Of a stretch of DNA of 18,420 bases, positions 1 through 18,420 are shown piece by piece; the first letter of the stretch is position 1, and each line of letters starts with the position of its first letter. The DNA comes from Candidatus Kaiserbacteria bacterium. GTDB lineage: Bacteria; Patescibacteriota; Minisyncoccia; Phycocordibacterales; UBA918. Below the pieces are notes generated by a model. The model was not told the origin of the DNA. It saw only the letters and a program-made list of their open reading frames with translations, and did no database searches. The translations under genes and the position numbers were made by a program. Location: positions 1-18,420 of the forward strand of contig JAGQLZ010000031.1 of assembly GCA_020428895.1 (NCBI GenBank), in the 5' to 3' direction.

Positions 1-60
1 GAAAAAGAAAAAGTAAAACTGAAGATAACTCGAGATGCGCGTCGAAAACGTGTGTCATAA
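1..60 (+). CDS. C-terminal tail of an upstream gene (partial)
   Basis: Reading from base 1, the frame gives 19 codons and then TAA at 58-60. The tail is strongly basic: EKEKVKLKITRDARRKRVS. The start and most of the gene lie outside the window, so I cannot name the product. A Lys/Arg-rich tail would fit a nucleic-acid-binding or ribosome-associated protein, or simply a charged cytoplasmic end, but nothing decides between these. The next gene starts about 30 bases later on the same strand, so the two could be co-transcribed. It could also be a chance open stretch, because only 60 bases are visible. Confidence 0.5.
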   Translation, partial: EKEKVKLKITRDARRKRVS

Positions 61-1611: not shown

Positions 1612-1640
1612 ATTATCGATTAAATCCCCATAAATTATAT

Positions 1641-1676
1641 TTATACCGCGCAATGCTAGTATCATGCGCGGTATAA
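1641..1676 (+). terminator. Intergenic hairpin, possible terminator of the cohesin gene
   Basis: TTATACCGCGCA (1641-1652) pairs perfectly with TGCGCGGTATAA (1665-1676), giving a 12-bp stem with a 12-base loop, 29 bases after the TAA of the cohesin gene. The core is GC-rich in an AT-rich setting, which is typical of an intrinsic terminator. However, the trailing T-run is weak (TTTATAATG) and the right arm runs almost into the next start codon. It may instead be an operator-like palindrome or a hairpin at the 5' end of the next mRNA. Confidence 0.45.
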
Positions 1677-1677
1677 T
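1672..1677 (+). promoter_or_regulatory. Perfect -10 hexamer TATAAT just before the giant gene
   Basis: TATAAT sits at 1672-1677, inside the right arm of the intergenic hairpin. With normal spacing, transcription would begin at about 1683-1685, that is on or next to the ATG at 1683. That would make the message leaderless, which agrees with the lack of a Shine-Dalgarno sequence upstream of this ATG. No good -35 box is visible 16-18 bases upstream, so the call is tentative. AT-rich sequence also produces such hexamers by chance. Confidence 0.35.
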
Positions 1678-1682
1678 TTATA

Positions 1683-1815
1683 ATGAGCAGAAATTCTACC
1701 TGCTTGTTAATTAGTGTGATAAGAAATTGTTATAAAAACAATCTAGTTTTAAAGTTTGGAGGTCTATCGGCTTTGTTTATAGTCGGTACGTCTTTTGTGT
1801 TTGCGGCGGTAATTG
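1683..1815 (+). other. Signal sequence of the giant protein
   Basis: The first 44 residues have a long, mildly basic n-region and a hydrophobic core at residues about 25-42, ending FVFAA before VIDR. This supports Sec export. Cleavage after residue 41 or 42 is likely but not certain. If uncleaved, it would serve as an N-terminal anchor. Confidence 0.75.
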
Positions 1816-4800
1816 ATCGGACTGAATATATCGAAGATAAACTATTGATCGTTCCTTCTTTCGCTACCTCAACTAGCTGGTCTAATGTTAATGAAGTCTT
1901 GGTGAATGATGTTTCTGAAGATTCTTTATACGATGACTTTTCCAACAAGAACAGCGCTAGATTACAAATGACTGCACTTTTTGAGCAGGAGTCCTTTAAT
2001 TCTTTAGATGAAGATAATTTTGACATAGATGATCAGAGTAGCGGTGTTTCTTCTAACAATGAATCTGAATCAGAAAATGATGTTTCCGAAGATGAAAGAG
2101 ACGCTGAAATTATTGAAGAGACAATAGAAACTGAAACCGAAGTTGAACAAACAGAAGTGACTGACAGTGAACCAGAAATACAACCAGAGACAGAAGATTC
2201 AGTAGGTGAAGTTGAAGAAAATTTAGAAGAAGTTTTAGATGACGAGATTGAAGATGTGGATTCTGAAAATGAGGCATCAGAAGAACCAATATCTTTTTCA
2301 GTTCCAGCATACAAAATTTCGCCGTTTAAATACATCATTGGTACATTTGCTTTCATGCAACAAGCAACTACAGTGCCTGTTACCACTGACGTGTCAGAAG
2401 CCCTTACCTCAGAAAGTGAAGAGGGTAATAATAATGAAGAGATCATTGAACCTTTGATTGAAGAGGAGATTGTTGAACAGGAAACTCAAGTTTCAACATC
2501 TTCTTTTGATACCACGTCTGCTGTAGCAGAAGAAAATGAATATGAAGAATCTGAAATTGATAGTAATAATGATATTGAATCAGAACAAGATATTAATTTT
2601 GATGAAGAGATTTTATTTTCTACAACTACCGATGATGTAATTGATGATGTAATTGATGATGTAGTAACTTCAACTGATGAATATGTTGAAGAAGAAATTA
2701 TTGACAACTCCTCAATCTTTTCAAATTTAAATTTTGCTTCAAGTAGCGCTCCCTGTAGAGAAGAAGATGGTTGTCAGAAACATCATTTGATAATTAGTGA
2801 TTTTTCAGTACCAACTTTAGAGAACAATAATAAATTAACTGATTTACAGCTTCGATTATCTTTAGCAGCACAGCCAAAATATGAGGAGGTTGATAGTGTG
2901 CAAAGAATAATAATTAGTTATCGATATGGTTCAGATGCAAATTGGTCTACCGCTGTTGAATTTGACTCAACTGAAGAGATTTCAAATAGCATGAACAATG
3001 GTTATCAGTTAGTTTCCTTGCCAACTCCAAGACAAATGAGCCAATTAGAATCTTTAGAGATTCGAATAACATATGAAGGTGACCCAAGAGATGCTCATAA
3101 TATTTATGTAGATGCTGTTTGGCTAGAGGCTTTTGCCGGAAGATTTTTTGAACCAGAGTATGATGTTGAATCTACTGATGAAATTGGTTATCAACGTGAA
3201 TTAGATATGCCAAAGTTGAACGACTTACGGTTTGCTAATGATGATTTTACTGCTAATGAATTACCTTTCTTCAACTTAAAATATAATTCTCAACAAGGTT
3301 TGATTGAAAGAACTTTTGAATCTTGGTTTGTAAATAAGAGACAATTTGAAATTCAGAAAGTAGAGCTGGTACACCCTTCTGGAAAACGTATTTCCATGGA
3401 TTATGACATTAATTATCGTGATAAAGGCGAATGGTCTCTTGAGTTTTTGCGTTATCCGCAACAAATTCAACCAGGTAAATACAAACTAGAAATTTCAATT
3501 AATGAAGACGATGAGTTGTATGTAGATAGCTTCGAGTTTTATTGGGGAGTACTGGCTGTCAATACTACTAAGAGTATGTATTTAGAGAATGAAGATGTTG
3601 ATTTTCATTTAGCAGCATTGACAGATTCAGGTGATACCATCTGTGATGCTGATTTACAGTTACAGGTAATCACACCATCTTCTGAAATTCACGATATTTC
3701 AGTTGAGCAGTCAGGTTATTGTGGTGATAATAATGTTACTGACGAACCAGATTATATTGCTGATTTTGCAGATACCGATGAGATTGGAACTTATCAGATT
3801 TTATTACAGCATTTCAATAAAGCTGGTAAGGTGGTTCATAAATCTCGCGATCGATTTGAAGTAAGAGAGTTTGTTCCTTATGAAATTGAACGTACTGCTC
3901 CAACTCGAATTTATCCGCCAGCTCCGTATAGAGTTTCTTTAAACATTAAAGCTAATCGTTCTTATGAAGGAGACATTATCGAACGAGTGCCGGCTGGATT
4001 TATAATTGATGATTATGGTGAGGCTACTTTAGCCACTTATCCATCTCATACAGAAATTATTTGGCATAACGTTGTTTTAGAGGAAGGGGATGAGCTCAAA
4101 TTATCTTATAAATTTGATGCTCCAGATATAAGTCCTTACATGTTCTTACTTGGTCCTCTAAACATGGATGGTTTTAAAGAAATCAGGCGTTGGCAAATTG
4201 CTTCTGATGCCTTAGGTGCTATTGCTACCTTGTATGGAAATCAAACAACTAATGGTACTGAACTAAACGATACTACAGTTGCTCCAATGGTATGGGCCAC
4301 CAGTACTTTTGATTCCTACTATTTTAATCATTCTACTAGTACTGATTCAACAAAATTATTTATCCAACGTGATGGTGACTACGCTTTTTCTGTTTCGTTA
4401 CCACTTTTACGAACCGATACAGACTCTGGTCGCGCTAGGTGGGGAGCAGAAATTAGAATTAATGGCGTAGTATACGAAACGGGTTATGCTCGCAGTGGCT
4501 ATGTTCGTGGTCAAAATAATCAATTTGAATCATCAAGTAATGGATATTTCTTTATTCCTGATATGCAGAAAGACGATGAGGTTGAAATTTATGTGGAACT
4601 ATTAACCACTCTTGATACTGGCATAACAGCTGAAATAAGTGGATCCGCTCAACTTTTAGCCGAATATATTTCCCCAGGTGAAAATGTGTTTGCGGCAACC
4701 TCTACTCAGCCAATCGGCACAACTACCTTGAATCAAATCACTGCTAACGAAATGGTTTGGATTGAGCAACGTCAAGATAGTGGTTTTTTACATTCAAATA

Positions 4801-7800
4801 CTATCAGTCCTGAAGATATAACCATCGTTAATCCCGGTGAATATTTTGTTACTATCAATATTCCTGTTACCACTCCAGAAACAACTAACACAAGACATAA
4901 TATTTTAGGTCGAGTACTACTTGATGGAGTAGAAGTGCCTGGTGGACAATTTTCTCAAGGTTACTTACGTGGTCCAGATCAATCCAGTGATGGAGACGCA
5001 TCTATGCATTGGTCAGGGGTAATTATATCGACTACCACAAGTCAAGTACTTTCCATTAGTGTTGAACGTGAGGCTGACAGTGGTCAAGTTTATGTTACTC
5101 CGGGAACATCTGCTTCAATTTACATTCAAGAATTACCATCCAGTGACGTGATTATGGTGACTGGTACACAACTAGTAACTAATTCAGACGAATGGAACCC
5201 AGCGGTTTCTTCAAGTATTGAATGGGAAGGTAGAAGTATTTACGACGCTACTGCTTATGATCATTCAACCACTAGTAATCCAAATGAAGTTGAGATTTTA
5301 GTAGCCGGCGATTACTTTATATCTTTTAATGCCGCCTTTACCAACGGTGATTCTCGTAATAACCCAATTGCTAAGATTTATATTGATGGTGTACCAGTTG
5401 AAGGTGTTGAGGTAAAACATGGTTACCAGCGAGACGCTGAAGGTCATGAGGACAGTTCTCTTTCGTTTACGTATTTACTTGAAAATGTTAGCGCCAACTC
5501 TGTTTTAACAGTATATATGGAGCGAGAAGGTAATACTGGCGCAGTTGATGATGCTACTGAAGCGATGTTGATGTTATGGAAAAAAGCTGAACTTGATTTA
5601 CGACCTGATACCTTTACCTTTTTTGACACCCCTTTTGATAACATACGTTTTGCATCGACAACTCCTATCTTTGAATTCCAAACTGATGATCCTGACGGAG
5701 TTTCAGATATTCAATATCAGTTTTCGATTTCGACTTCTTCAAGTTTTACTTCTTCAACCACCAGAACCTCCGGCGTAGATAGTGGTTTTAGTAATCTTGA
5801 TACACCAGTTGATACCTCACCATTTACTGAAGGTGAACAGATTAGATTTGCTTTACAGTCCGCAGATTCATTATTGGATAACACAACATATTATTGGCGA
5901 GTTAGAGCAAAAGATACTGACGGCTCTGATCAATGGGGTTCTTGGTCGGCATCACAAAGTCTAACGGTTGACTCTGGAGCCAGTACGCCTTTCTGGTTTC
6001 AGACCCTTGATGGCCAATTTGAATCTAACACTTTAGTAACAGCTAGAAGTTCTGGTAACGATAGTGCTGAAGTAGATGTGGTCGCCAACAGGGACATATT
6101 AGCTGTTTATGCAGAAGGTACTTTATCAACCCCACATTACACTATTTGGGATGGAACAATTTGGAGTTATGAGCAAGATGCACTAAATACTAATTCAAGC
6201 ATTGAATGGCTTGAGACCGAAGCGGCTACTACCAGAGATGAATACACTTTGGTTACTCAGGGTACAGATGGTCATGTAAATGCTCAGATATACAATGCTA
6301 CTACTTCTTCTTGGGGTAATATTCTGGAATTAACAACTACTTCGGCCTCAACATCAATTCGTGGAATTGATGTTGCTTATGAATCATTATCAGGAAACGC
6401 CATGGTGGTCACCTGTTCTGGTGGAGCAGATCCAGTGTACGCATATTGGGACGGTTCAAGTTGGAGTAGTGTTGATACCATTAATGTTACAGCTAGTGAT
6501 CAGTGTCAGCATATTAGATTAGCAGCTGATCCAACTTCAAATGAAATTATTTTAGTACAAAGAGGAGTGACTGGTAATTTCGAAGCGTTGGTTTGGAATG
6601 GTACAAGTTGGGGCGATGCAGTTCTGGTTGGAGTAGCTCCTTCTGGTAACACTAATAACTGGCACGCACTTAACTCGACTGTTGTTTATGAAGAGTCTGG
6701 AGATCAGGCATTGGTCGTGACAGCAGATGGAAATGACAACGAGTTTGTATATACAACTTGGGATGGCGATGAGTGGTCTACTGTTTTGAATGTACCTCAT
6801 GATGCTGATTATGAAACAGGAGTTTTGAAAGCTGATGAGGGCAGTGATCAAGTGGCTTTATGTATGATTGATAGTGCCAGTGATGCTCAAGTTATTCTCT
6901 GGGATGGATCAGCTTGGGGGTCGTTTAATGAGCTAACAGCAACTGCTAATACATGGCTTGGTCGGGCAATTGACTGTGAATGGGAGACTTTAGCTGGACG
7001 TGATGGTTATTTGATGGTTGCATATTCTGATACTGGTGTTGATGGTGATTATCATCAAGTTTGGAATGGTTCAACTTGGTCGGGAGAACAAGCTGGTTCA
7101 AACATTAATGATTCTTATTATGTGCAAACTGAACGAGCTGGTGACGGCACGATTGTAGCTTTTCATTTTATGGATGAAGGTGCTGATGAGCTCTATAACA
7201 CTGATTGGAATGGTTCAGAGTGGAGTGATTATGGCACTATTGAAACTGATCCAGCTCAAATCAACACTAATCCTAGACAAGAAACTTTCTCTCTTTCTGC
7301 TAAAAGATATCAATCGGCGGTTGGTGTTGTAACTACTGCACCGATTGATTTTACTGATGTACCAGACCAGCCAACGTGGGGTGATCTTTCATTCAATGCC
7401 ACTGAACCTTCTGGTGCTAGTGTGCGAGTTCGATTGCTTTATTCAGACGCTGGCACTTGCGATGCTTATATACCTAATGGTGTTTTGTCAGGTAATACTG
7501 CTGGATTCCTAGCCTCTACCACACCGATTGATCTTTCTGGTTTAAGCACCACAACCTATGACCAGATTTGTCTTGAAGCCACCATTAACCTGTCAGGTAG
7601 TCAGTCCGGACAACTAGAAGATTGGACTCTAACATGGGAAAGAACACCAAAACTTGAACAGTATGCCTATCGTTGGTATGACAATATTTCTAATTTTACT
7701 CCAGTTGACCCATGGCCAGTTGGTGGAAACGATTTGTCTGAAAACCAAGCGATTAGTAGTGAGTACGCAATTAATGATGGTGAAGAGTTGCGTCTGCGCA

Positions 7801-13800: not shown

Positions 13801-16800
13801 GAGGCGATATTCGAATAACTGAAAGTGACGGAGTAACTGAGTTAGCTCGCGAAGTTGTAAATATAGATACCGGCGCAGATACTGGTGAATTATATTTTAA
13901 CGCTTCAAATATCAGTAGTTCAGCTGATACTACCTTCTATATTTATTATGGAAATAGTGGAGCGTCCGAACCAGCTGCGGCTAGTACTTACGGTAGTGAG
14001 AATACATGGAATAGTGACTACATTGCAGTTTTCCATATGGAAGAACTAAACGCTATTGACTCCACCAGTTATAATCACGATTTAACAGCGGTTGGAGATA
14101 CACCGGCCCTTACTGCTAGTGGTTATATTGGTAGTGCAATATCAATTACCGACAATGGTGGTAGTGACTACCTTAACTTCGGTGACAACCTAGGTGAACT
14201 AACTGGTCTTAGTCAAATGGCCGTGTCAGCTTGGGTTTATATTGATGACGATAGCGATGATGATTCCTTCTTTACTCGTCCCGGTTCTTCAGCACCGATC
14301 TTGCTGTGGGATAACATCAGTGGCTCGACTAATAATGATACTTATACATTTAACGTTGATAATACCGGAGTAGCGGCTAACCGTGTTGACGCTGCACCAA
14401 ACGGAATTTCTGTTGGTGACACTTGGCAGTATGTAGTTGGAGTGATGAATGGTAGTAATCGATATATATACGTTGATGGTTCTTTAGCAAATTCCAATTC
14501 AGGCGGTTCAGCCACTATCCCAAGTAACACGGGTGGTGCGCAGATTGGTTATTGGAGTGGTTCGACTGGTTTTGATTATCAAGGAGAAATTGACGAATGG
14601 CGACTTTCTAAAGTAGCTCGTTCAACTGATTGGATTTCGGCTGAACATACAAACATGTCATCATCTACTGATTTTTATTCAGTTGGTGCTTACGAATTAG
14701 ACAGCTCAAGAAGTTTTGATGAAACCAATGTTGATATAAATGGAGATGTTGTAATTGAGTCCGGCGCAAGCATAACCTTACCGAGTGGCAACCTCACAGT
14801 CGGCGGATCGTTTGATAATGATGGAGTGTTTAATGCTAATAGTGGTACGGTTGATTTTGATTCAATCGCTGGTTCTGAAACTATTGCTGCTGGTAATTCA
14901 ACTTTTGCCACTCTTAATTTTGATAGTGTAACTGGTGATTGGGATGTAACTGAACACGCTACTGCATCCGTCGCTATTAATATCAATGATGTCGGTGACT
15001 GGAATTTAAATTCGGGAATTGTTCTAGAAAGTACTGGTACTTTCAGTAATACTGTAGGTGGAGCTTCGACTACTTGGGATGGAGTTTTACGTCTGTCTTC
15101 TGATACTGATTACGTTATAAATTCAAAGACCGATCAGGGTGATCAATATTCAACAATAGTTACTGTTGGTAATACCGACATGTCTATGTGGAATTCATCT
15201 TCCACAGTCTACGCAACCAATGATAGTTCTTCAATTTACTCAATGGATCATAACGGAAATTCTGGAGATTTGTACATTTTTGGTAATTATGAAAGAAGTA
15301 GTGGTACTGAGTATTGGAGTTACGCTACTGATTTTGATGGCACAGATTTAACAGGCGGTGGTGAGCGTCAAGTAGATGTCAGAATTGAGAACGGAGGAGT
15401 TGTTGAAATTAGTACTTCAACCATAATCATTAATGGTATTTCAACTGCTTCAACTACTATTGATGCACAAAGTGGTTCTTATACGTTTACTGCTTCTAAA
15501 GCTACTGTAACCGCTAATTACTTTGAAATGACTGGTAGTGATGTTAACGGTATGAATCTTACAAATTCTTCAGTAGTAACGAGTCTAAATAATGCTCTAT
15601 TTTCAATCGGCCCAGCTGTAGCAGCAATTTCAGTTGACGCTTCTACCGTAGATGCAAATCCAGCATCTCAGTTCTTCAATACAAACTTTGTGACTGCGGG
15701 TGGTTCAGCCAACGTTACTCTAAATGGTGTACCGACTTCTTACTGGTGGTTCCGTAATGGTCAGGGAGATCGTTATGGTGAAGCTTTTGACAATCTTGAC
15801 GGTGATCCAGGTTCAATCCGTTGGGATGACAGTTCATACAATATTGTAATTTCAGGTCAGGTATTTTCAGATGATGGTTCAACTACTTTAGGTGGCCCAA
15901 CTTGTGATGGTACGACCAACAATGTACGAGTAGTGGTTGATGGTGGTACTTATGCCTCAACCACATATTGTAGTGGCATAGATGGTTCTTACTCATTTAA
16001 TGCCGTTTCATATATTGGAGATCCGGTAATAATGATCTACCTAGATACTAATGGTGGAGAAGTAGGAAGTGTGATTACTAAGACGCCAACGGCTGATATT
16101 ACTAACTTGAATATTTATGCTGATCGCGTGATGACAAGGAATGAAGACACTAGCCCTTTATCAATTGCAGATATGGCGGTTTATGACAGTAGTGATGACT
16201 CTGATTTGCGATATACCGCTGCGACCAGTACCACTGATACATTAGTAGTAGCTGCAGACACTGAACTAATCATCGCTTCTTCAAGTACATTTGCGCCAGC
16301 CGGAAATATTACCCTACTTTCTAGTGGTAGTGGTGAGACATTTGATGGTTCTTTCCATATTGATGACGGAGCAACTTTTGTTGGAGCTAACGGACAGAGC
16401 CATATAATTGGTGGTAATTTCTTTAGAGATACTGGTGGTATTTTCACTGGGGCTTCTTCAAGTATTACTTTCACAGCGACTACTACTGGTAAAACTATCG
16501 ATAGTGATGATGCCGGTGTAGTAAATTTCCAACAAATTGACTTTACTGGAGTGGGCGGTGCTTGGAATATAAACGCCAATATTGCAGTAGTTGGTAATAT
16601 GACAATTGCTACTGGTACTGTTACTGGTACTGGAGATATAACAATGACTGGCGGTACTTTAGGAGGTAATGGTCTGCTCTCAATGGGTGGCGGAACTGTT
16701 ACGATTGGAACTTCAACAGAACTAGGTGGTGTTCAAGGTTGGACTTTTAATAATTTAACTCTAGGCGATGGGGTTGTTACAAATACTACCACCAGAAGTA

Positions 16801-18420
16801 ATGACGCTACTACTACTGTTAGTGGTGTTCTAACAATTACCTCTGGTCATTTCCTTGATGCTGGTAACTCAGCTTGGGATTTGTCAGGATCAGGTACACC
16901 ATTTGTAGAAAATGGTACTTTCCTAGAAGGTACCAGTAGTTTTACGTATAGCGGTGGTGGAGCCACTAATATTACTTCAACCAATTATTATACTCTTCGA
17001 TTAGCTGCTTTAGCTGGGTCCCCAACTTATACCTTCTCTTCAGTTGGATTTAGAATCAATAATGATTTGATTGTTGGTGACGCTAATACAACGGTAACAA
17101 TTAATACTAACGACCCAGCTATTTTGGTTGAAGGTGACATAATAATTAATCAGTTCGGTACTTTAATAGGTAGTGACAGCAGTGCCTTGACATTAAATGG
17201 TAATTGGAATAATAACGGTACCTTTGTTGGTAGTAATGGACTGGTGCGATTTACCAGTCTTGACGCCTTTAATATTGCAGCCGGTAGTAGTAGTTTTTCA
17301 GACGTTGATATTATCGGTAGTGGATTAGCAACGATTAGTGAAAATGCAACGTCTACCGGCACGTTTACATTAGCAACATCTTCAGATGTGGTTGTTCAAA
17401 GTGGCGTAGTCCTAGCGGTTGGTGGTCAGTTTATAAATGATTCAGGAGGATTAAATACTACTTGGTTTGGTTCAACTTTACGATTGTTTGGTGGTGGTAA
17501 TTATGAGATTAGTGATAAGAATGTTTCTGATCGTTATGACAATTTAGTGGTTTCTGCAGGTACTGACATAAGATCTTGGAATTCATCAGCTACTACAACT
17601 ATTGTTGAAAATAATAGTTCTTGGTACTCAATGGATCATGCCGGAGTAAATGGAGAACTGTACATATATGGAGATTATGAAGCATCGTCTGGTAATGATT
17701 ACTGGAGTTACGCTACTGACTTTGATGGTACTGACCTAACTTCTGGTAGTAACGAACGACAAGTTGAAGTTTATATTGAAAGTAATGGTTCAGTTACTTA
17801 CAGTGGGGCAGGTATAGAAATTGTCGGTACTTCAACCGCCACCACTACCATTTCCGTACAAACAACTGGTGATTATTCATTTGATGTTTCAGCAGGAACA
17901 TTTAATGCAAGATATTATCAATTTTCAGATTTGGATAGTGACGGTTTAACCTTTACAAATTCACCCGATATAACCTCGTTAGCTTATGGAGATTGGATAT
18001 TAGATACTAATGGAGATGCAGCGCTAACAGTAGATGGTTCAGTACTTGATAATAATCCAGGTTCTAACATTATTCATAATCGATTTGCTACTACTTCCGG
18101 AGTTACCACAGCGGTAAACGTTCGGACAAATGGTAGTTCAGTTAGTTCTTGGCGCTACAACTTACACACTGGTGATGTTGATGGTGAAGATTTCGATGAT
18201 GATACTGGTGATCCCGGTTATATAGTATGGGACAACTCAACTACTACCTACACTATTGGTGGAACTGTATACCAAAATGATACGTCATCACCATCCACAG
18301 CGTGTGGAGCAACAGCTAATATTGTTTTGGTTGTCAATAATATTCAGTTGGCTTCCACTACCTGTAACGGATCTGGAGTTTATCAGTTTGAGGATATAAA
18401 TTTCGACAGCAATGATGTAA
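1683..18420 (+). CDS. Giant multi-domain secreted surface protein (5'-complete, runs off the window)
   Basis: One frame is open from ATG 1683 to the last base: at least 5,579 codons with no stop, C-terminus not in the window. The start gives a plausible signal sequence: basic residues R3, R14, K18 and K24, hydrophobic core FGGLSALFIVGTSFVF, and a VFA-type cleavage site near residues 41-42. The mature chain begins with an acidic stalk, followed by macroglobulin-like, jelly-roll-like, fibronectin-III-like, WNG-repeat, DUF2341, LamG and beta-array modules, each described separately. Composition is Ser/Thr/Asn/Asp/Gly-rich with few Lys and Cys, as expected of extracellular beta proteins. No enzyme motif was recognised. 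The likely role is a cell-surface fibre or adhesin that binds glycans or proteins; this is inference from module types. No alternative ORF in this stretch is credible. I see no SD before 1683; GGAGGT at 1758-1763 with in-frame TTG at 1773 is a weaker start because it removes the basic n-region. Confidence 0.93.
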   Translation, partial: MSRNSTCLLISVIRNCYKNNLVLKFGGLSALFIVGTSFVFAAVIDRTEYIEDKLLIVPSFATSTSWSNVNEVLVNDVSEDSLYDDFSNKNSARLQMTALFEQESFNSLDEDNFDIDDQSSGVSSNNESESENDVSEDERDAEIIEETIETETEVEQTEVTDSEPEIQPETEDSVGEVEENLEEVLDDEIEDVDSENEASEEPISFSVPAYKISPFKYIIGTFAFMQQATTVPVTTDVSEALTSESEEGNNNEEIIEPLIEEEIVEQETQVSTSSFDTTSAVAEENEYEESEIDSNNDIESEQDINFDEEILFSTTTDDVIDDVIDDVVTSTDEYVEEEIIDNSSIFSNLNFASSSAPCREEDGCQKHHLIISDFSVPTLENNNKLTDLQLRLSLAAQPKYEEVDSVQRIIISYRYGSDANWSTAVEFDSTEEISNSMNNGYQLVSLPTPRQMSQLESLEIRITYEGDPRDAHNIYVDAVWLEAFAGRFFEPEYDVESTDEIGYQRELDMPKLNDLRFANDDFTANELPFFNLKYNSQQGLIERTFESWFVNKRQFEIQKVELVHPSGKRISMDYDINYRDKGEWSLEFLRYPQQIQPGKYKLEISINEDDELYVDSFEFYWGVLAVNTTKSMYLENEDVDFHLAALTDSGDTICDADLQLQVITPSSEIHDISVEQSGYCGDNNVTDEPDYIADFADTDEIGTYQILLQHFNKAGKVVHKSRDRFEVREFVPYEIERTAPTRIYPPAPYRVSLNIKANRSYEGDIIERVPAGFIIDDYGEATLATYPSHTEIIWHNVVLEEGDELKLSYKFDAPDISPYMFLLGPLNMDGFKEIRRWQIASDALGAIATLYGNQTTNGTELNDTTVAPMVWATSTFDSYYFNHSTSTDSTKLFIQRDGDYAFSVSLPLLRTDTDSGRARWGAEIRINGVVYETGYARSGYVRGQNNQFESSSNGYFFIPDMQKDDEVEIYVELLTTLDTGITAEISGSAQLLAEYISPGENVFAATSTQPIGTTTLNQITANEMVWIEQRQDSGFLHSNTISPEDITIVNPGEYFVTINIPVTTPETTNTRHNILGRVLLDGVEVPGGQFSQGYLRGPDQSSDGDASMHWSGVIISTTTSQVLSISVEREADSGQVYVTPGTSASIYIQELPSSDVIMVTGTQLVTNSDEWNPAVSSSIEWEGRSIYDATAYDHSTTSNPNEVEILVAGDYFISFNAAFTNGDSRNNPIAKIYIDGVPVEGVEVKHGYQRDAEGHEDSSLSFTYLLENVSANSVLTVYMEREGNTGAVDDATEAMLMLWKKAELDLRPDTFTFFDTPFDNIRFASTTPIFEFQTDDPDGVSDIQYQFSISTSSSFTSSTTRTSGVDSGFSNLDTPVDTSPFTEGEQIRFALQSADSLLDNTTYYWRVRAKDTDGSDQWGSWSASQSLTVDSGASTPFWFQTLDGQFESNTLVTARSSGNDSAEVDVVANRDILAVYAEGTLSTPHYTIWDGTIWSYEQDALNTNSSIEWLETEAATTRDEYTLVTQGTDGHVNAQIYNATTSSWGNILELTTTSASTSIRGIDVAYESLSGNAMVVTCSGGADPVYAYWDGSSWSSVDTINVTASDQCQHIRLAADPTSNEIILVQRGVTGNFEALVWNGTSWGDAVLVGVAPSGNTNNWHALNSTVVYEESGDQALVVTADGNDNEFVYTTWDGDEWSTVLNVPHDADYETGVLKADEGSDQVALCMIDSASDAQVILWDGSAWGSFNELTATANTWLGRAIDCEWETLAGRDGYLMVAYSDTGVDGDYHQVWNGSTWSGEQAGSNINDSYYVQTERAGDGTIVAFHFMDEGADELYNTDWNGSEWSDYGTIETDPAQINTNPRQETFSLSAKRYQSAVGVVTTAPIDFTDVPDQPTWGDLSFNATEPSGASVRVRLLYSDAGTCDAYIPNGVLSGNTAGFLASTTPIDLSGLSTTTYDQICLEATINLSGSQSGQLEDWTLTWERTPKLEQYAYRWYDNISNFTPVDPWPVGGNDLSENQAISSEYAINDGEELRLRMSLKNSNIALGTSTNSFALQYSANNSCSMATDWYDVGELGSTTALWRGYANAIVGSDWYSGSWNRRIEITIDSSNVDDDLTDFPVFVDLADLPNSFFNNVQNDGDDIRITEDDGLTELPFELVEINTGTKSGELYFKPDLISSTTDSSFFIYYDNSGASGYSAGHTYGSDNVWDSNYQAVYHFSDTPTGSFGDITNSADSSGSNDATFGGTITGGTVAAGVAGSGYDFNNSNNSITTPDFVGGATDFTISYWIEDPTYNDDRVINGGGAYSVLIWPDNDNGLDCLVNSTSNRANNGGGGNGDNLTGWVLHTCTYDSTTIRNYANGDPSGTDTYTGAVSDPGSTNVIGSDGSRWMEEVLDEVRFSNIARSAEWISTEYNNLINPTGFYDVSSEELVSDGRQIPSTLLTDSTKAETYEEENDAGPNYNGLQVDDIAEWDWVIENNGAAAGTNYCFRMVRDDRSILDTYTQYPQLITNGPPDAPTLSAPFDNEQFASSTPWFEFSAVDDVGDEVDYQIQVDDDYNFSDPVIIDKNSVTNFLQFESLSDSGDKSPFDSGSLIRFTPITALSDNTTYYWRVRAQDPNASGVYGEWSTPYSFRRDSGTTITTWHQRTEEQFATDDHVDTEPNAADDVRLVSGATNGTTTSSAIDFDDVDVGNAWGQFSFNNTLGGQNITYHIEYQVSGNNWDLIPNEALPGNIAGYTSSPVNLVTLDTDTYNKIRLVAVFSGSGSNPQLDDWTVTWGQRVEQPTHENPFDNAKVATTSPTLLFVTFDPESDDLQYELQISTSSSFAASSTFVSGVDAGFRNTASSTDTSPFISGDTIAYDIQSTLTSSSTYWWRVRARDPLGDNVYSRWSDPESFTIDESITVSTWYQTTGDQFDTDSLLDIETSTSSAKITSILREAMVAYGELGSLAPRYRKWNGSAWGDEGTAASIGALVEWASLEANPIRDEYALGTFDDANDFNFQIYNGVNSTWGNLFETGVEYDYIENSRGFDLAYEQISGDLIAVNCVGSDAVYAVWNGTTWSATTSISLANANDCYGVELVADPTSDEIILGVRHDNPDTYDFEFMVWNGSAWGNATTVGSLAEEDSFGMAIEYEESGDEALVAVSNGGASNFISIVWNGSSWGSYELVTLGDDFEWGMFARDEGSDNLALCYVDNDQDLGIIEWNGSSWGSFTETTDIGETKDGLPISCQYMTDDANDGDVLLVYSDTNNPRVVGEGGKYNIYSSGVLTGESDLDDVEDAFNVQTTRTADDLILAVFLDHNNGDRYDFTYWNGSSWAAHDAGAYISDIPSVVGNPFTPSLDMAARIYPNFTSGRIRSTLIDYDDGTGPRWESFSFTDSTPVDSYITYRVYYETPSATVLVPDLYLPGNSTGNLTSPIDLSQLDKSIHNELTLEADFTCVDGNCPVLYDWMVEWSEGITVSGMAYEYDEVTPLTGGTVSVVVNGVLQAGKTGTIAGDGSWEINNVTTFEDDTIVVFIDGAVADANEAIAATEYDGNGDVTGMVLAERHLTIGSNDESVVVTNAGLDDYDYTDNENVFYSVSVSDEFDLCGDSGCEDAELRVLAGATYKPGANSIVHDIENNGTLDLDATTLRVSGSWVDKATTSVDTSTVIFTATTSAESLSGTPTLSFYNVTFGETSGDASFNLLEPTINVGNILRVNYGSFNRATHTINVAGNLIIGAGGEFAGIGTTTFNGSGNRSWTDSSATSTNIGHVVVDGTFKTVNISSNVRAQSITIGSNDTLRGGTGNTLYVAENFVNNNSFVADSSNVNFYSTSTAFITNSSAFYNLTFSGVDGIYSFTNSSVNINNNLLIATGTVTLPTGLTTVRGSFSSASGTFAHNNGEVRFTSNSAGKTITSNASTFFNAFYDISFTGTGSWTFTDNATTTNNFTVSNGSITFPSGTMTIGRDFAFNGGSFNANGGEIIFLIQGPDSIDTNGSSFNDVRFRGATAGSWYASSWDYREAITIDSTEVDSDLNDFPVYVDLSNLSANFFNNVKSDGGDIRITESDGVTELAREVVNIDTGADTGELYFNASNISSSADTTFYIYYGNSGASEPAAASTYGSENTWNSDYIAVFHMEELNAIDSTSYNHDLTAVGDTPALTASGYIGSAISITDNGGSDYLNFGDNLGELTGLSQMAVSAWVYIDDDSDDDSFFTRPGSSAPILLWDNISGSTNNDTYTFNVDNTGVAANRVDAAPNGISVGDTWQYVVGVMNGSNRYIYVDGSLANSNSGGSATIPSNTGGAQIGYWSGSTGFDYQGEIDEWRLSKVARSTDWISAEHTNMSSSTDFYSVGAYELDSSRSFDETNVDINGDVVIESGASITLPSGNLTVGGSFDNDGVFNANSGTVDFDSIAGSETIAAGNSTFATLNFDSVTGDWDVTEHATASVAININDVGDWNLNSGIVLESTGTFSNTVGGASTTWDGVLRLSSDTDYVINSKTDQGDQYSTIVTVGNTDMSMWNSSSTVYATNDSSSIYSMDHNGNSGDLYIFGNYERSSGTEYWSYATDFDGTDLTGGGERQVDVRIENGGVVEISTSTIIINGISTASTTIDAQSGSYTFTASKATVTANYFEMTGSDVNGMNLTNSSVVTSLNNALFSIGPAVAAISVDASTVDANPASQFFNTNFVTAGGSANVTLNGVPTSYWWFRNGQGDRYGEAFDNLDGDPGSIRWDDSSYNIVISGQVFSDDGSTTLGGPTCDGTTNNVRVVVDGGTYASTTYCSGIDGSYSFNAVSYIGDPVIMIYLDTNGGEVGSVITKTPTADITNLNIYADRVMTRNEDTSPLSIADMAVYDSSDDSDLRYTAATSTTDTLVVAADTELIIASSSTFAPAGNITLLSSGSGETFDGSFHIDDGATFVGANGQSHIIGGNFFRDTGGIFTGASSSITFTATTTGKTIDSDDAGVVNFQQIDFTGVGGAWNINANIAVVGNMTIATGTVTGTGDITMTGGTLGGNGLLSMGGGTVTIGTSTELGGVQGWTFNNLTLGDGVVTNTTTRSNDATTTVSGVLTITSGHFLDAGNSAWDLSGSGTPFVENGTFLEGTSSFTYSGGGATNITSTNYYTLRLAALAGSPTYTFSSVGFRINNDLIVGDANTTVTINTNDPAILVEGDIIINQFGTLIGSDSSALTLNGNWNNNGTFVGSNGLVRFTSLDAFNIAAGSSSFSDVDIIGSGLATISENATSTGTFTLATSSDVVVQSGVVLAVGGQFINDSGGLNTTWFGSTLRLFGGGNYEISDKNVSDRYDNLVVSAGTDIRSWNSSATTTIVENNSSWYSMDHAGVNGELYIYGDYEASSGNDYWSYATDFDGTDLTSGSNERQVEVYIESNGSVTYSGAGIEIVGTSTATTTISVQTTGDYSFDVSAGTFNARYYQFSDLDSDGLTFTNSPDITSLAYGDWILDTNGDAALTVDGSVLDNNPGSNIIHNRFATTSGVTTAVNVRTNGSSVSSWRYNLHTGDVDGEDFDDDTGDPGYIVWDNSTTTYTIGGTVYQNDTSSPSTACGATANIVLVVNNIQLASTTCNGSGVYQFEDINFDSNDV
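1830..2740 (+). other. Acidic Glu/Asp/Ser-rich stalk, residues about 50-353
   Basis: Nearly every second residue is Glu, Asp or Ser, with Thr, Val and Ile between (for example SESENDVSEDERDAEIIEE). No folded domain is apparent. It is interrupted at 2292-2390 (residues about 204-236) by a short neutral to hydrophobic patch, SFSVPAYKISPFKYIIGTFA, which is too short and polar for a clear membrane helix. A likely role is an extended, charged spacer between the cell envelope and the folded modules. Confidence 0.75.
2631..2666 (+). repeat. Three tandem 12-base units (VIDD)
   Basis: GATGATGTAATT occurs at 2631-2642 and 2643-2654, followed by GATGATGTAGTA at 2655-2666. It encodes DDVIDDVIDDVV within the acidic stalk. 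This is a short in-frame tandem repeat that could vary in copy number by slippage without breaking the frame. Confidence 0.85.
2741..3542 (+). other. Two beta-rich domains after the stalk, residues about 353-620
   Basis: The first part starts with a Cys pair (CREEDGC, residues 358 and 364) and continues as alternating strands (LQLRLSLAAQ, RIIISYRYGSD, LESLEIRITYEG, NIYVDAVWLEAF). The pattern resembles a galactose-binding-like or stalk-capping beta-sandwich. The second part (about 500-620) contains WFVNKRQFEIQKVELVHPSGK and PGKYKLEISINE, an Ig-like pattern with a PGxY turn. I do not recognise a named family for either. Confidence 0.5.
3543..3870 (+). other. Macroglobulin-MG2-like domain, residues about 621-730
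   Basis: WGVLAVNTTKSMYLENEDVDF resembles the TDKxxYxPGexV entry strand of alpha-2-macroglobulin MG2 domains. It is followed by a Cys pair (C654 in ICDADLQLQV and C680 in GYCGDNN) that could form a disulfide, and a GTYQILLQHFNKAGKVV strand pair. I recall closely similar text in CPR giant proteins, so this is probably a conserved core of the family. Assignment to the MG fold is inference. Confidence 0.5.
3871..4230 (+). other. PTRIYP beta domain, residues about 730-850
   Basis: It directly follows the MG-like domain. Motifs are FVPYEIERTAPTRIYPP at about 729-745, then SLNIKANRSYEGDIIERVP and ELKLSYKFDAPDISP. The 'GDIIERVPAGF' stretch resembles DUF11-like adhesin repeats, in which a conserved strand announces a boundary to the next domain. 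The family is not certain. Confidence 0.45.
4281..4674 (+). repeat. Jelly-roll-like repeat 1 of 3, residues about 867-998
   Basis: Features shared by the three units are a central strand G-D/E-Y-x-x-(S/T)-x-x, a basic or polar strand, an I-x-(I/L)-(N/D)-G-V turn, a G-Y-x-R strand and a final E-x-x strand. In this copy they are GDYAFSVSLPL, IRINGVVYE, SGYVRGQ and VEIYVELLT. The order of strands and length (about 130-160 residues) resemble C1q/TNF-like jelly rolls, which often bind proteins. The fold is inferred from pattern only. Confidence 0.5.
4675..5160 (+). repeat. Jelly-roll-like repeat 2 of 3, residues about 998-1160
   Basis: The diagnostic strands are GEYFVTINIPV, VLLDGVEVPGG, QGYLRGPDQ and VLSISVEREADSGQVYV. 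They align by eye with the units before and after it. The E-R-E-(A/G)-D/N-(S/T)-G ending is nearly identical to that of repeat 3 (MEREGNTGAV), indicating tandem duplication within the gene. Confidence 0.55.
5161..5600 (+). repeat. Jelly-roll-like repeat 3 of 3, residues about 1160-1306
   Basis: The strands are GDYFISFNAAF, IYIDGVPVEGV, HGYQRDAEG and VLTVYMEREGNTGAV, followed by MLMLWKKAEL leading into the first fibronectin-like domain. It is most similar to repeat 2. Confidence 0.55.
5610..5970 (+). repeat. Fibronectin-III-like domain A, residues about 1310-1430
   Basis: The copy starts DTPFDN.RFASTTPIFEF and ends in the hallmark TTYYWRVRAKDTDGSDQWG (YYWRVRA at 5889-5909). The motif (S/T)TP-x-F-x-F ... 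NTTYYWRVRA-x-D recurs in copies B (9225) and C (10035). Such domains usually act as spacers or protein-binding modules in secreted bacterial proteins. Confidence 0.7.
5994..7320 (+). repeat. Eight-unit W(N/D)G-x-x-W repeat block A (propeller-like), residues about 1438-1880
   Basis: After FWFQTLDGQF there are eight units of about 47-55 residues. Each has a W(N/D)GxxW-type motif: starts at 6147, 6291 (variant YNATTSSW), 6447, 6594, 6759, 6900, 7062 and 7206. Between motifs there is a (V/A)(Y/W)E-x-x-(S/A)G-x-x-(A/Y)-(L/M)-V strand. Repeat length and number fit a seven- or eight-bladed beta-propeller. The fold is inferred; no known propeller family was assigned. Confidence 0.65.
7377..7643 (+). 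repeat. W-to-W beta-sandwich copy 1, residues about 1899-1988
   Basis: It runs from TWGDLSFNATEPSG to LEDWTLTWER, with a central NGVLSGNTAGFLASTTPIDLSGL. The same scheme (W...F, then (L/P)GN-x-G, (S/T)PxxL, and final DW(T/M)(L/V)xW) recurs at 9771-10025 and 11799-12056. Length is about 90 residues; the family name is unknown to me. Confidence 0.6.
7650..7970 (+). other. First half of a split conserved domain, residues about 1990-2096
   Basis: It begins YRWYDNISNFTPVDPWPVGG, then DGEELRLRMSLKNSN, FALQYSANNSCSMATDW and TTALWRGYANA. I recall this RWY...LRMSL...LQY...W.DVG...WRG text as one continuous domain in other CPR giant proteins. There the sequence goes on directly to the text found here after 8982. 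Here the continuation is separated by a DUF2341-LamG cassette. Confidence 0.5.
7971..8310 (+). other. DUF2341 domain, copy 1, residues about 2097-2210
   Basis: It starts WYSGSWNRRIEITIDSS, with DDLTDFPVFVDLADL, then DDIRITEDDGLTELPFEL and SSFFIYYDNSGASG. These are the hallmarks of DUF2341 (W-x-R-x-x-I-x-I, DFPVxV-x-L, DIRxT, YYxN). The domain is common in secreted bacterial and archaeal proteins beside LamG domains, and its function is undefined. It is about 60% identical by eye to copy 2. Confidence 0.85.
8313..8970 (+). other. LamG / concanavalin-like lectin domain, copy 1, residues about 2211-2430
   Basis: The entry is VWDSNYQAVYHFSDTPTG, the usual (Y/W)-x-x-V-(Y/W)-H-(F/M) start of LamG domains after DUF2341. 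It is followed by FTISYWIEDPTYND and an exit LDEVRFSNIARSAEWISTEYN, the typical last strand and helix. LamG domains bind carbohydrates or proteins. It ends NPTGFYDVSSEE. Confidence 0.8.
8982..9224 (+). other. Second half of the split conserved domain, residues about 2434-2515
   Basis: The text is SDGRQIPSTLLTDSTKAETYEE, then VDDIAEWDWVIENNGAAAG, NYCFRMVRDD and YTQYPQLITN. It continues the domain begun at 7650-7970 and leads straight into fibronectin-like domain B at NGPPDAPTLSAP. Confidence 0.5.
9225..9600 (+). repeat. Fibronectin-III-like domain B, residues about 2515-2637
   Basis: It starts DAPTLSAPFDNEQFASSTP and ends NTTYYWRVRAQDPNASGVYG (YYWRVRA at 9513-9533). It aligns with copies A and C. 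It is followed by WHQRTEEQFATDD, the same W-x-Q...QF link as in A and C, but then by no WNG-repeat block. Confidence 0.7.
9771..10025 (+). repeat. W-to-W beta-sandwich copy 2, residues about 2697-2782
   Basis: It runs AWGQFSFNNTLGGQ ... LPGNIAGYTSSPVNLVTL ... LDDWTVTWGQ. It is homologous by eye to copies at 7377 and 11799. This copy follows fibronectin-like domain B after only about 60 residues. Confidence 0.6.
10035..10395 (+). repeat. Fibronectin-III-like domain C, residues about 2785-2904
   Basis: It starts THENPFDNAKVATTSPTLLF, then ELQISTSSSFAASSTFVSGV and STYWWRVRARDPLGDN (tryptophan codons at 10305 and 10308). The inner text QISTSSSF...SGVDAGF...TDTSPF closely matches copy A (SISTSSSF...SGVDSGF...VDTSPF), suggesting that A and C are the closest pair. 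Confidence 0.7.
10407..11690 (+). repeat. Eight-unit W(N/D)G-x-x-W repeat block B (propeller-like), residues about 2909-3337
   Basis: After WYQTTGDQF there are eight units. Motifs start at 10554, 10698 (variant YNGVNSTW), 10854, 11010, 11160, 11301, 11469 (degenerate YNIYSSG) and 11622. The number of units, the unusual second unit and the spacing pattern closely mirror block A (unit lengths 144, 156, 156, 150, 141, 168, 153 bases versus 144, 156, 147, 165, 141, 162, 144). The block is therefore a diverged duplicate, not a fresh array. Confidence 0.65.
11799..12056 (+). repeat. W-to-W beta-sandwich copy 3, residues about 3373-3459
   Basis: It runs WESFSFTDSTPVDSYITYRV ... YLPGNSTGNLTSPIDLSQL ... 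YDWMVEWSEG. It carries a Cys pair (CVDGNC) not found in copies 1 and 2. It closes the fibronectin-propeller part and leads into the beta-array part. Confidence 0.6.
12057..12520 (+). repeat. Array header copy 1 (V-x-G-x-x-Y domain), residues about 3459-3613
   Basis: ITVSGMAYEYDEVTPLTGGT starts a beta-sandwich of the kind seen in carboxypeptidase-regulatory-like or Ig-like adhesin domains. It continues VSVVVNGV, GSWEINNVT and VVFIDGAV. After it comes HLTIGSNDE and AELRVLAGATYKPG, which begins the strand repeats. Copies 2 and 3 are at 15837 and 18246. Confidence 0.55.
12520..13661 (+). repeat. Beta-strand repeat array 1, first part, residues about 3613-3993
   Basis: Degenerate repeats built from short strands follow each other: TLRVSGSW, STVIFTATTS, FYNVTFGETSG, NILRVNYGSF, NLIIGAGGEF, then GEVRFTSNSAGKTI and GSWTFTDNATTT. 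The period is roughly 60-70 residues, with 'GSWTFTDNATTTxNFTVxxGxITFPSG' as the clearest unit. The pattern resembles autotransporter-type or filamentous beta-helix repeats. A parallel beta-helix fold is inferred. Confidence 0.6.
13662..14000 (+). other. DUF2341 domain, copy 2, residues about 3994-4107
   Basis: It starts SWYASSWDYREAITIDSTEV, then DLNDFPVYVDLSNL, GDIRITESDGVTEL and TTFFIYYGNSGASE. It is very similar to copy 1 at 7971. The text just before it (FNDVRFRGATAGSW) is an unfinished strand of the beta array, so the domain sits inside a repeat. Confidence 0.85.
14007..14700 (+). other. LamG / concanavalin-like lectin domain, copy 2, residues about 4109-4340
   Basis: It enters at TWNSDYIAVFHMEELNAIDS, with MAVSAWVYIDDDSDD and WQYVVGVMNGSNRYIYVDGS. 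The last is the textbook LamG stretch. It exits at IDEWRLSKVARSTDWISAEH and ends in DFYSVGAYEL. It is probably a glycan- or protein-binding module. Confidence 0.85.
14701..15060 (+). repeat. Beta-strand repeat array 1, resumed, residues about 4340-4460
   Basis: After the cassette the array picks up with SFDETNVDINGDVVIESG, SITLPSGNLTVGGSF and NSGTVDFDSIAGSETIAAGN. These match the second half of a unit such as WTFTDNATTTNNFTVSNGSITFPSGTMTIG at 13434-13524. The cassette therefore interrupts one repeat unit. Confidence 0.55.
15063..15836 (+). repeat. YSMDH module copy 1, residues about 4461-4719
   Basis: This long module contains SSIYSMDHNGNSGDLYIFGN, YWSYATDFDGTDLTGG and ERQVDVRIENGG. It then has a strand-rich stretch ending YWWFRNGQGDRYGEAFDN and DPGSIRWDDS. 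A second copy begins 2,388 bases later (TACTCAATGGATCAT at 15237 and 17625). DNA identity is high in the core. Confidence 0.7.
15837..16330 (+). repeat. Array header copy 2, residues about 4719-4883
   Basis: YNIVISGQVFSDDGSTTLGG, then VRVVVDGGTYASTTYC, DGSYSFNAVSY and VIMIYLDTNGGEVG follow the same plan as copy 1 at 12057. It has an added Cys pair (TCDG and YCSG). It ends in LIIASSSTFAPAGNITLL, the start of array 2. Confidence 0.6.
16331..17450 (+). repeat. Beta-strand repeat array 2, residues about 4883-5256
   Basis: The strands are ETFDGSFHIDDG, SSITFTATTTGKTIDS, AVVGNMTIATGTVTGTGDI, LGGNGLLSMGGGTVTIGTS and LVRFTSLDAFNIAAGSSS. Gly/Thr/Asn-rich turns alternate with short hydrophobic strands, with the same logic as array 1 but no inserted cassette. 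Confidence 0.6.
17451..18245 (+). repeat. YSMDH module copy 2, residues about 5257-5522
   Basis: It contains SSWYSMDHAGVNGELYIYGD, DYWSYATDFDGTDLTSG and ERQVEVYIESNG. It ends WRYNLHTGDVDGEDFDDDTG and DPGYIVWDNS. It parallels copy 1 at 15063 along its whole length. Confidence 0.7.
18246..18420 (+). repeat. Array header copy 3 (cut by the window end), residues about 5522-5579
   Basis: TYTIGGTVYQNDTSSPSTAC, then IVLVVNNIQLASTTC and GVYQFEDINF align with header copy 2, including the Cys pair. It shows that the super-repeat pattern continues past the window. Confidence 0.6.

What the first reader, a model, noticed from the sequence alone, without database searches (positions are those of the whole stretch)
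1683..18420. Single open frame of at least 5,579 codons running off the window
One frame stays open for 16.7 kb and the protein is still unfinished. Module boundaries, codon style and repeat homologies all keep the same frame from start to end, so it is a real giant gene and not chance. In a small CPR-type genome this would be a very large coding investment in one secreted protein. Its C-terminal anchor or cleavage signal is not known.
Basis: seen in the sequence. Interest (0 to 1): 0.8.

Follow-up and report, generated by a model that had tools for sequence, protein, structure and literature searches.

The report
Giant surface protein of ultrasmall bacteria
The window holds most of one real gene for a probably secreted protein of about 7,000 amino acids, the centrepiece of an all-or-none gene cluster in some ultrasmall bacteria that may build a large surface structure for sticking to other cells, although that function is untested.

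Summary
Confirmed. ATG 1683 to the window end is one open frame of 5,579 codons. The window is a whole contig; contig C35 shares its last 27 nt in frame and completes the gene at about 7,059 codons. A database protein on a 31,740-nt contig agrees but for three internal residues, and six congeners have complete orthologues of 5,516-7,776 aa.

The protein looks secreted and modular, with LamG, DUF2341, FN3-like, propeller-like and TNF/BclA-like units, and ends in a conserved beta-sandwich domain (CTD). A companion protein downstream shares the CTD, and beside it lies a membrane protein for whose predicted fold Foldseek ranks Enterococcus WxLIP first. Of 297 genomes of the order, all 18 with the CTD have this partner; 2 of the other 279 do. 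The locus also encodes cohesin and dockerin proteins; in the genus, CTD and partner are all-or-none (21 of 38).

Best reading: an attachment fibre held by a WxL/WxLIP-like mechanism; adhesion and anchoring are inferred. Giant DUF2341/FhaB proteins of Patescibacteria were already reported, so this is a new variant of a known kind.

The parts
1..60 (+). 3' end of an Hsp20-type small heat-shock gene (the contig starts inside it)
   Evidence: Frame 1 begins EKEKVKLKIT and ends at a stop at 58-60, like the C-termini of the Hsp20 genes at this place in relatives; the G004 copy hits PF00011.
91..1611 (+). Cohesin-domain protein with a C-terminal membrane helix and a conserved, probably cytosolic tail; start codon uncertain
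   Evidence: PF00963 31.6 bits against cut-off 24.1; nine sequences aligned, with a near-invariant C-terminal tail; cohesin at 178-549. Membrane helix read by eye.
1634..1684 (+). RNA hairpin between the two genes that overlaps the annotated ATG
   Evidence: -21 kcal/mol, z -3.5, 0 of 200 shuffles as low (window 1612-1690); not called as a terminator by the scan.
1683..18420 (+). Giant gene, 5' part (5,579 of about 7,059 codons); continues on contig C35 to a stop
1743..1811 (+). N-terminal hydrophobic segment: secretion signal or membrane helix
   Evidence: Sequence; relatives have a similar segment near their N-termini. No signal predictor was run.
1965..2747 (+). Acidic, Glu/Asp-rich low-complexity linker
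   Evidence: Residues 1-500 are 15.4% Glu and 9.0% Asp; limits by eye.
2748..4292 (+). N-terminal unit without a known family; weak MG2-like signal in some members; not present in full in every giant
   Evidence: Alignment A5; MG2 in 3 of 8 members, best E 1e-4; no convincing PDB relative by sequence; in G002, G013 and G043 only its first quarter matches.
4293..5582 (+). Three tandem beta-sandwich repeats, TNF/BclA-like
   Evidence: Self-similarity 856-1290; BclA_C E 5.9e-5, 23.4 bits, below cut-off 38.
5643..5963 (+). Ig/FN3-like domain 1
   Evidence: Ig_Rha78A_N 26.4 bits, cut-off 27.4; similar to domains 2 and 3.
6045..7337 (+). Propeller-like module 1 with six W-[ND]-G-[ST] motifs
   Evidence: fold not confirmed.
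7950..9002 (+). DUF2341 + LamG-like pair 1
   Evidence: 59% identical to pair 2 over 111-124 aa; not itself listed by Pfam for the piece scanned, which ended inside it.
9231..10460 (+). Ig/FN3-like domains 2 and 3 with a beta module between them
   Evidence: Self-similarity; Ig_Rha78A_N 36.9 bits against cut-off 27.4 on domain 3.
10608..11783 (+). Propeller-like module 2
   Evidence: 34-40% identical to module 1.
12120..13652 (+). Repeat region of about 80-aa units, solenoid-like
   Evidence: Self-similarity; solenoid nature is inferred from sequence.
13635..14702 (+). DUF2341 + LamG pair 2
   Evidence: DUF2341 25.9 bits (cut-off 23.4) and Laminin_G_3 74.8 bits (cut-off 27.6).
14736..17126 (+). 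About 800-aa super-repeat, copy 1
   Evidence: alignment A7.
17127..18420 (+). About 800-aa super-repeat, copy 2 (cut by the contig end); a further partial copy, another DUF2341 and the C-terminal domain are on C35
   Evidence: 116-nt DNA repeat 15237-15352 / 17625-17740 at 76%.

Best explanation
The frame is the 5' four-fifths of a real gene for a secreted, modular surface protein of about 7,050 aa. The gene is the centre of a conserved locus carried by about half the species of its genus and scattered through other families of the order. Most likely mechanism: the protein is exported by an N-terminal signal; its conserved C-terminal beta-sandwich domain (CTD), shared with the companion protein four genes downstream, is held at the cell surface by a membrane-anchored, WxLIP/PapD-like partner encoded next to the companion; and the long body (LamG, FN3-like, TNF/BclA-like, propeller-like and repeat modules) reaches out to bind glycans or proteins of another cell. 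Cohesin proteins on the membrane, dockerin proteins and a cohesin+dockerin adaptor from the same locus probably form further joints of the surface assembly. Shown: the gene, its completion, its conservation, the locus, the domain hits, and the co-occurrence and adjacency of CTD and partner. Inferred: export, CTD-partner binding, cohesin-dockerin binding, adhesion.
Confidence: 0.62

Rival explanations
1. A giant cell coat or S-layer-like scaffold that protects the cell and has no specific partner cell.
For: Repetitive, acidic architecture without an enzyme domain over its cut-off; 1 of 45 CTD members has a weak S-layer-like hit (LMWSLP_N, E 0.0085); the giant ORF of Velamenicoccus was proposed to form a coat (passages of PMC10066038).
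Against: LamG, FN3-like and TNF/BclA-like modules are typical of binding proteins (general knowledge); patchy presence among congeners fits an accessory interaction trait better than a basic coat.
Confidence: 0.22
2. A polysaccharide-degrading or scavenging complex, cellulosome-like, in which the giant protein captures substrate and dockerin proteins carry the activity.
For: Cohesin and dockerin proteins in the same locus; LamG-type modules; an ABC ATPase and a MacB/FtsX-type permease inside the locus; the FN3 protein matches PF16656, the N-terminal domain of purple acid phosphatases, though no phosphatase catalytic domain was listed.
Against: No glycoside hydrolase, lyase or protease reached Pfam's cut-off in the giant protein or in the 14 neighbouring own-genome proteins scanned (two further neighbours, p395 and the 221-aa protein, were not scanned); the permease family is not a sugar importer (general knowledge).
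Confidence: 0.13
3. A long frame that is not made as one protein: the product is cleaved or only partly translated, so its size means little.
For: Strong hairpin over the annotated start; broken copies occur (G040; seven of the 120 listed relatives end abnormally).
Against: Frames of several thousand codons with a conserved C-terminus are kept over wide divergence (29-55% identity over the compared region for the relatives listed after P0002; C-terminal motif in 111 of 120).
Confidence: 0.07
4. Assembly artefact joining separate genes.
For: Internal repeats and the contig break inside the gene.
Against: A second assembly and six complete relatives with single matches across the junction.
Confidence: 0.02

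Closest known systems
Giant FhaB/DUF2341 exoproteins of Patescibacteria (PMC11809585; passages and section 14 read)
   Same: Patescibacteria proteins over 4,000 aa with DUF2341 domains, suggested to be adhesins; that paper counts 149 proteins over 4,000 aa among 2.1 million, 82 of them with FhaB and/or DUF2341.
   Different: The paper found no full-length homologues of its own two proteins and suggested domain reshuffling. Here one family of about 7,000 aa has many relatives of similar length, a fixed locus, a conserved C-terminal domain with a membrane partner, and cohesin/dockerin neighbours.
WxL / WxLIP (DUF916-DUF3324) surface clusters of Gram-positive bacteria (PMC10599100; abstract and outline seen)
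   Same: Large protein with a C-terminal domain, encoded near a smaller protein with the same domain and a protein of two Ig-like domains plus a C-terminal membrane helix; fold match of the partner to WxLIP.
   Different: No WxL or WxLIP Pfam match for CTD or partner; the C-terminal motif is WGI-type and not a dual Trp-x-Leu; different phylum; protein about 7,000 aa; cohesin/dockerin genes added. The smaller CTD protein is about 630 aa, not a lone domain.
Giant ORFs of Omnitrophota (PMC10066038; passages seen)
   Same: Giant, probably surface proteins in small host-dependent cells, some with laminin_G_3 or dockerin domains.
   Different: One of 39,678 aa with 42 predicted membrane helices; described as poorly conserved; no such locus described in the passages read.
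Cohesin-dockerin systems, including non-cellulosomal ones (Peer et al. 2009; seen only as a reference)
   Same: Cohesin and dockerin domains over Pfam cut-offs, and a cohesin+dockerin adaptor.
   Different: No carbohydrate-active enzyme domain detected in the proteins scanned; the giant protein itself shows neither domain.
Saccharibacteria epibiont surface factors (PMC10633639; passages seen)
   Same: A dockerin-domain protein (SEML1_0315) and a fibronectin III protein named among essential proteins of a Patescibacteria Tn-seq screen; adhesins needed for epibiotic growth.
   Different: Different class; no giant protein or such locus in the passages read.

Membership tests
WxL/WxLIP system | Partner protein with two tandem Ig-like domains and a C-terminal membrane helix | tested here: met
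   AlphaFold2 model of the L049 member, pLDDT 80, pTM 0.49; Foldseek ranks 1-3 WxLIP; prediction only, and the fold is common.
WxL/WxLIP system | Match to Pfam WxLIP models in the partner | tested here: not met
   None listed for 12 partner members or the own-genome copy at E<=1; two other membrane-type proteins of such loci match WxLIP_PGBD at E 0.006-0.007, below cut-off.
WxL/WxLIP system | C-terminal WxL domain with dual Trp-x-Leu motif on the large protein | tested here: not met
   No WxL Pfam hit among 45 CTD members at E<=1; the motif is [YF]WGI.
WxL/WxLIP system | Large and smaller proteins sharing the C-terminal domain, clustered with the membrane partner | tested here: met
WxL/WxLIP system | Physical binding of the domain to the partner and to peptidoglycan | not testable with these tools
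   Needs purified proteins.
Cohesin-dockerin system | Cohesin domain over the family cut-off | tested here: met
   31.6 bits, cut-off 24.1; 26 of 38 genus genomes over cut-off.
Cohesin-dockerin system | Dockerin domain over the family cut-off | tested here: met
   26.3 bits, cut-off 22.9; 23 of 38 genus genomes over cut-off.
Cohesin-dockerin system | Demonstrated calcium-dependent cohesin-dockerin binding | not testable with these tools
   Not assayed.
Cellulosome | Dockerin-borne carbohydrate-active enzymes | tested here: inconclusive
   None above cut-off in the proteins scanned: the giant protein, 14 own-genome neighbours and five proteins of relatives.
Giant FhaB/DUF2341 exoproteins of Patescibacteria | Over 4,000 aa with DUF2341 | tested here: met
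   About 7,059 aa; DUF2341 above cut-off twice.
Giant FhaB/DUF2341 exoproteins of Patescibacteria | FhaB (COG3210) domain | not tested
   No COG library at hand; no haemagglutinin-type Pfam family was listed for the giant protein.

The most novel reading that the evidence does not exclude
Patescibacteria own a surface-display module of their own: a C-terminal beta-sandwich tag plus a membrane-anchored WxLIP/PapD-like receptor. In this locus it displays a fibre of about 7,000 aa which, together with cohesin-dockerin joints (two membrane cohesins, two or more dockerin proteins, a cohesin+dockerin adaptor), forms a dedicated host-attachment organelle that is gained or lost as a unit.
Probability: 0.33. 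Interest if true: 0.85.

Novelty: new variant of a known kind. Interest (0 to 1): 0.64.

Why it matters
How most Patescibacteria hold on to their hosts is open. This locus names a concrete and testable set of parts: a conserved giant protein, a C-terminal tag with a co-occurring membrane partner, and cohesin/dockerin connectors. Because about half the species of one genus carry it and half do not, species can be compared for attachment. The tag-partner pair reaches other Patescibacteria groups, so it can be used to list surface proteins that now read as 'hypothetical'. It also qualifies the earlier remark that giant Patescibacteria exoproteins lack full-length homologues.

Tried and rejected
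Assembly chimera or chance frame: rejected. Enzyme identity: no Pfam or NCBIfam support (the NCBIfam scan covered residues 356-5579 and the C35 part only). FhaB: COG not tested. Sequence searches of the PDB with the partner, CTD, N-terminal unit, propeller-like and TNF-like alignments gave nothing convincing; the cohesin-protein alignment hit 2yn3 (E 2e-5) but outside its cohesin part, and otherwise weak rows. Fold search of the CTD gave only generic Ig-like matches; the WxL chain is not among the rows shown, which does not exclude it. DNA repeat finding was uninformative apart from one 116-nt pair. A self-BLASTP of the whole protein in one piece printed no repeats and was redone with 200-aa pieces. 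Paper searches over the held PMC library: no title listed and no passage seen describes this locus, but I opened only seven of the listed papers, and mostly by term search. bioRxiv is not held, and the giant-gene preprint cited in PMC12057145 (passages seen) could not be read. PMC12281837 had none of six terms looked for; PMC10936435 (passages) reports highly expressed extracellular proteins of other Paceibacteria, some with Ig-like folds, not this protein.

Full report
OBSERVATION. The window's plus strand has one open frame from ATG 1683 to the window end, 5,579 codons. With the window's base composition such a run has a chance of about 10^-170; the other five frames over the same stretch have 243-850 stops, and codon-position composition is similar along its length. 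The window is all of contig C29 of a 671-kb, 105-contig, about 80%-complete genome.

COMPLETION. A search of the same genome with the distal part of the frame found contig C35, whose minus strand opens inside a 1,488-aa frame. The two contig ends share 27 identical bases in frame; joined, the frame is 7,059 codons and then a stop. The protein database holds P0002, 7,029 aa, on a 31,740-nt contig: it matches the joined protein end to end from a later start, with three internal differences. P0002 is listed without a source, so I call it a second assembly, not a second organism. Six complete same-genus relatives align across the junction in single HSPs.

RELATIVES. Complete same-genus orthologues measure 5,516, 5,599, 6,645, 7,515, 7,532 and 7,776 aa; the G004, G010 and G023 copies fetched are cut by contig ends or incomplete. 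The protein search over residues 350-1460 gave 216 relatives at E<=1e-3 of 995 scored candidates, 120 listed; candidates are limited to 0.55-1.75 times the query length. The listed ones have a median length of 6,935 aa, and 111 of 120 carry a [YF]WG-type motif in the last 45 residues. Of the nine without it, two have a YFGI variant and seven look truncated or frameshifted (my reading). Names given by the sources are Pacebacteria, Paceibacteria, Parcubacteria, Kaiserbacteria and Patescibacteria group.

ANATOMY. N-terminal hydrophobic segment; acidic linker; a unit of about 515 aa without a known family (alignment A5), with a weak MG2-like signal in 3 of 8 members; three TNF/BclA-like repeats (below cut-off); Ig/FN3-like domains (one above cut-off); two propeller-like modules with six W-[ND]-G-[ST] motifs each; DUF2341+LamG pairs, the second above Pfam cut-offs, the first by 59% identity to it, and another DUF2341 on C35; and super-repeats of about 800 aa. 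The N-terminal unit is not constant: A5 matches 18 of 38 genus genomes, in G002, G013 and G043 only over its first quarter, and not in G005, G021, G044, G047 and G049, which have the CTD or companion (some are cut by contig ends). Lysine is 0.2-0.8% in each 500-residue block from 3001 to 6000. No catalytic family reached its Pfam cut-off in the giant protein, and no NCBIfam family matched residues 356-5579 or the C35 part.

C-TERMINAL DOMAIN. The last 350 residues of six same-genus giants are 49-56% identical to this genome's copy (A1). A scan of genome contigs (one genome each for 84,980 species) with this alignment found 62 loci: by title 52 belong to Patescibacteria groups, nine are only 'bacterium' and one is Planctomycetota (assignment of the candidate names to Patescibacteria is from general knowledge). 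In 54 of 62 the match ends within 72 nt of the stop; in six it does not (L090, L095, L096, L098, L099, L100), and L083 and L086 are cut by contig ends. AlphaFold2 models the part from residue 91 on with pLDDT above 90 in all but one ten-residue block, as two beta sandwiches; residues 1-80 are not modelled confidently. No Pfam family above cut-off is listed for 45 members; only generic Ig-like fold matches. The companion protein of about 630 aa downstream carries the same domain.

LOCUS. Order across own contigs C29, C35, C58 and relatives: dockerin protein (seen in relatives only), Hsp20, cohesin+membrane helix, GIANT, FN3 protein, ABC ATPase, MacB/FtsX permease, companion, partner, dockerin protein, p395, membrane protein, second cohesin+membrane protein, small protein, cohesin/dockerin adaptor, p642, second large protein (2,051 and 2,059 aa in two relatives, 2,484 in this genome), membrane protein, LytR_C protein. 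Other genes lie between some of them in some relatives. That C58 follows C35 in this genome is inferred from relatives. Cohesin (PF00963) and dockerin (PF00404) exceed Pfam cut-offs. In eight genus genomes both domains match the same short frame (218-264 aa; G002, G006, G014, G021, G040, G042, G043, G050), read, some of these matches being below cut-off. All 21 CTD carriers have at least one cohesin and one dockerin match at E<=1e-3, against 6 and 4 of the 17 others; G046's dockerin is below cut-off, and one of the 17, G023, is a carrier whose contig ends inside the giant gene. Carriers have larger genomes (median about 900 against 700 kb, sizes rounded by the tool, p 0.0025).

INTERPRETATION. 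I read this as a secreted, surface-held binding fibre: held by the CTD with its partner, by analogy to WxL/WxLIP; joined by cohesin-dockerin contacts; acting on another cell, as expected for host-dependent Patescibacteria. The parts rest on sequence; export, binding and adhesion are inferred. Support from elsewhere: adhesins and a dockerin protein were essential in a Saccharibacteria Tn-seq screen (passages of PMC10633639), and extracellular substances are seen where Paceibacteria attach to methanogens (passages of PMC10936435).

COMPARISON AND NOVELTY. Giant DUF2341/FhaB proteins of Patescibacteria have been reported (PMC11809585), so a giant gene as such is not new. I saw no description of the conserved family, the all-or-none locus, the CTD-partner pair or the cohesin-dockerin link in the search listings and passages (open-licence PMC only). 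It is not filed as a WxL system because two defining sequence features were tested and not met; it may still work like one.

Noticed in passing
window 1634-1684: A very stable hairpin (z -3.5) lies between the cohesin gene and the giant gene and includes the annotated ATG; either a terminator without a clear T-run, a translational switch, or a sign that GTG 1716 or TTG 1773 is the real start.
   Followed up: partly
window about 1366-1608 and the 3' end of L028 2418-4169: The cohesin membrane proteins end in a highly conserved charged, probably cytosolic tail, more conserved than the cohesin part in alignment A2; it may link the surface complex to something in the cytosol.
   Followed up: no
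L028 8037-15491 (+): A second large protein (2,484 aa here, 2,051 and 2,059 aa in two relatives) in the same locus ends in a different conserved motif (AGDY...YIA.P.F) and is followed by another membrane-type protein, so a second tag-partner type may exist.
   Followed up: partly
L028 4826-5596 (+) and homologues: Small protein with a dockerin and, in several relatives, also a cohesin domain: a possible adaptor that chains cohesin-dockerin contacts.
   Followed up: partly
L028 16431-18149 (+): Protein with LytR_C (36.4 bits, cut-off 22.2) and a weak WxLIP_PGBD hit (E 0.006).
   Followed up: no
L027 7033-8574 (-): The FN3 protein after the giant gene matches the N-terminal domain of purple acid phosphatases (78.6 bits, cut-off 30) and fn3, with no phosphatase catalytic domain listed.
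   Followed up: no
G040:C10 and G013:C16: In G040 the N- and C-terminal parts of the giant protein lie in separate frames and the partner gene is interrupted; the G013 partner match shows one stop. Decay or assembly errors; not mended.
   Followed up: no
L079 (JALOQQ010000037.1): A contig titled Planctomycetota carries CTD and partner genes; probably a binning error, otherwise a transfer between phyla.
   Followed up: no
joined giant protein, residues 3001-6000 (window 10683-18420 and contig C35): Lysine is only 0.2-0.8% in each 500-residue block while Asp, Ser and Thr are high, giving an acidic body.
   Followed up: no
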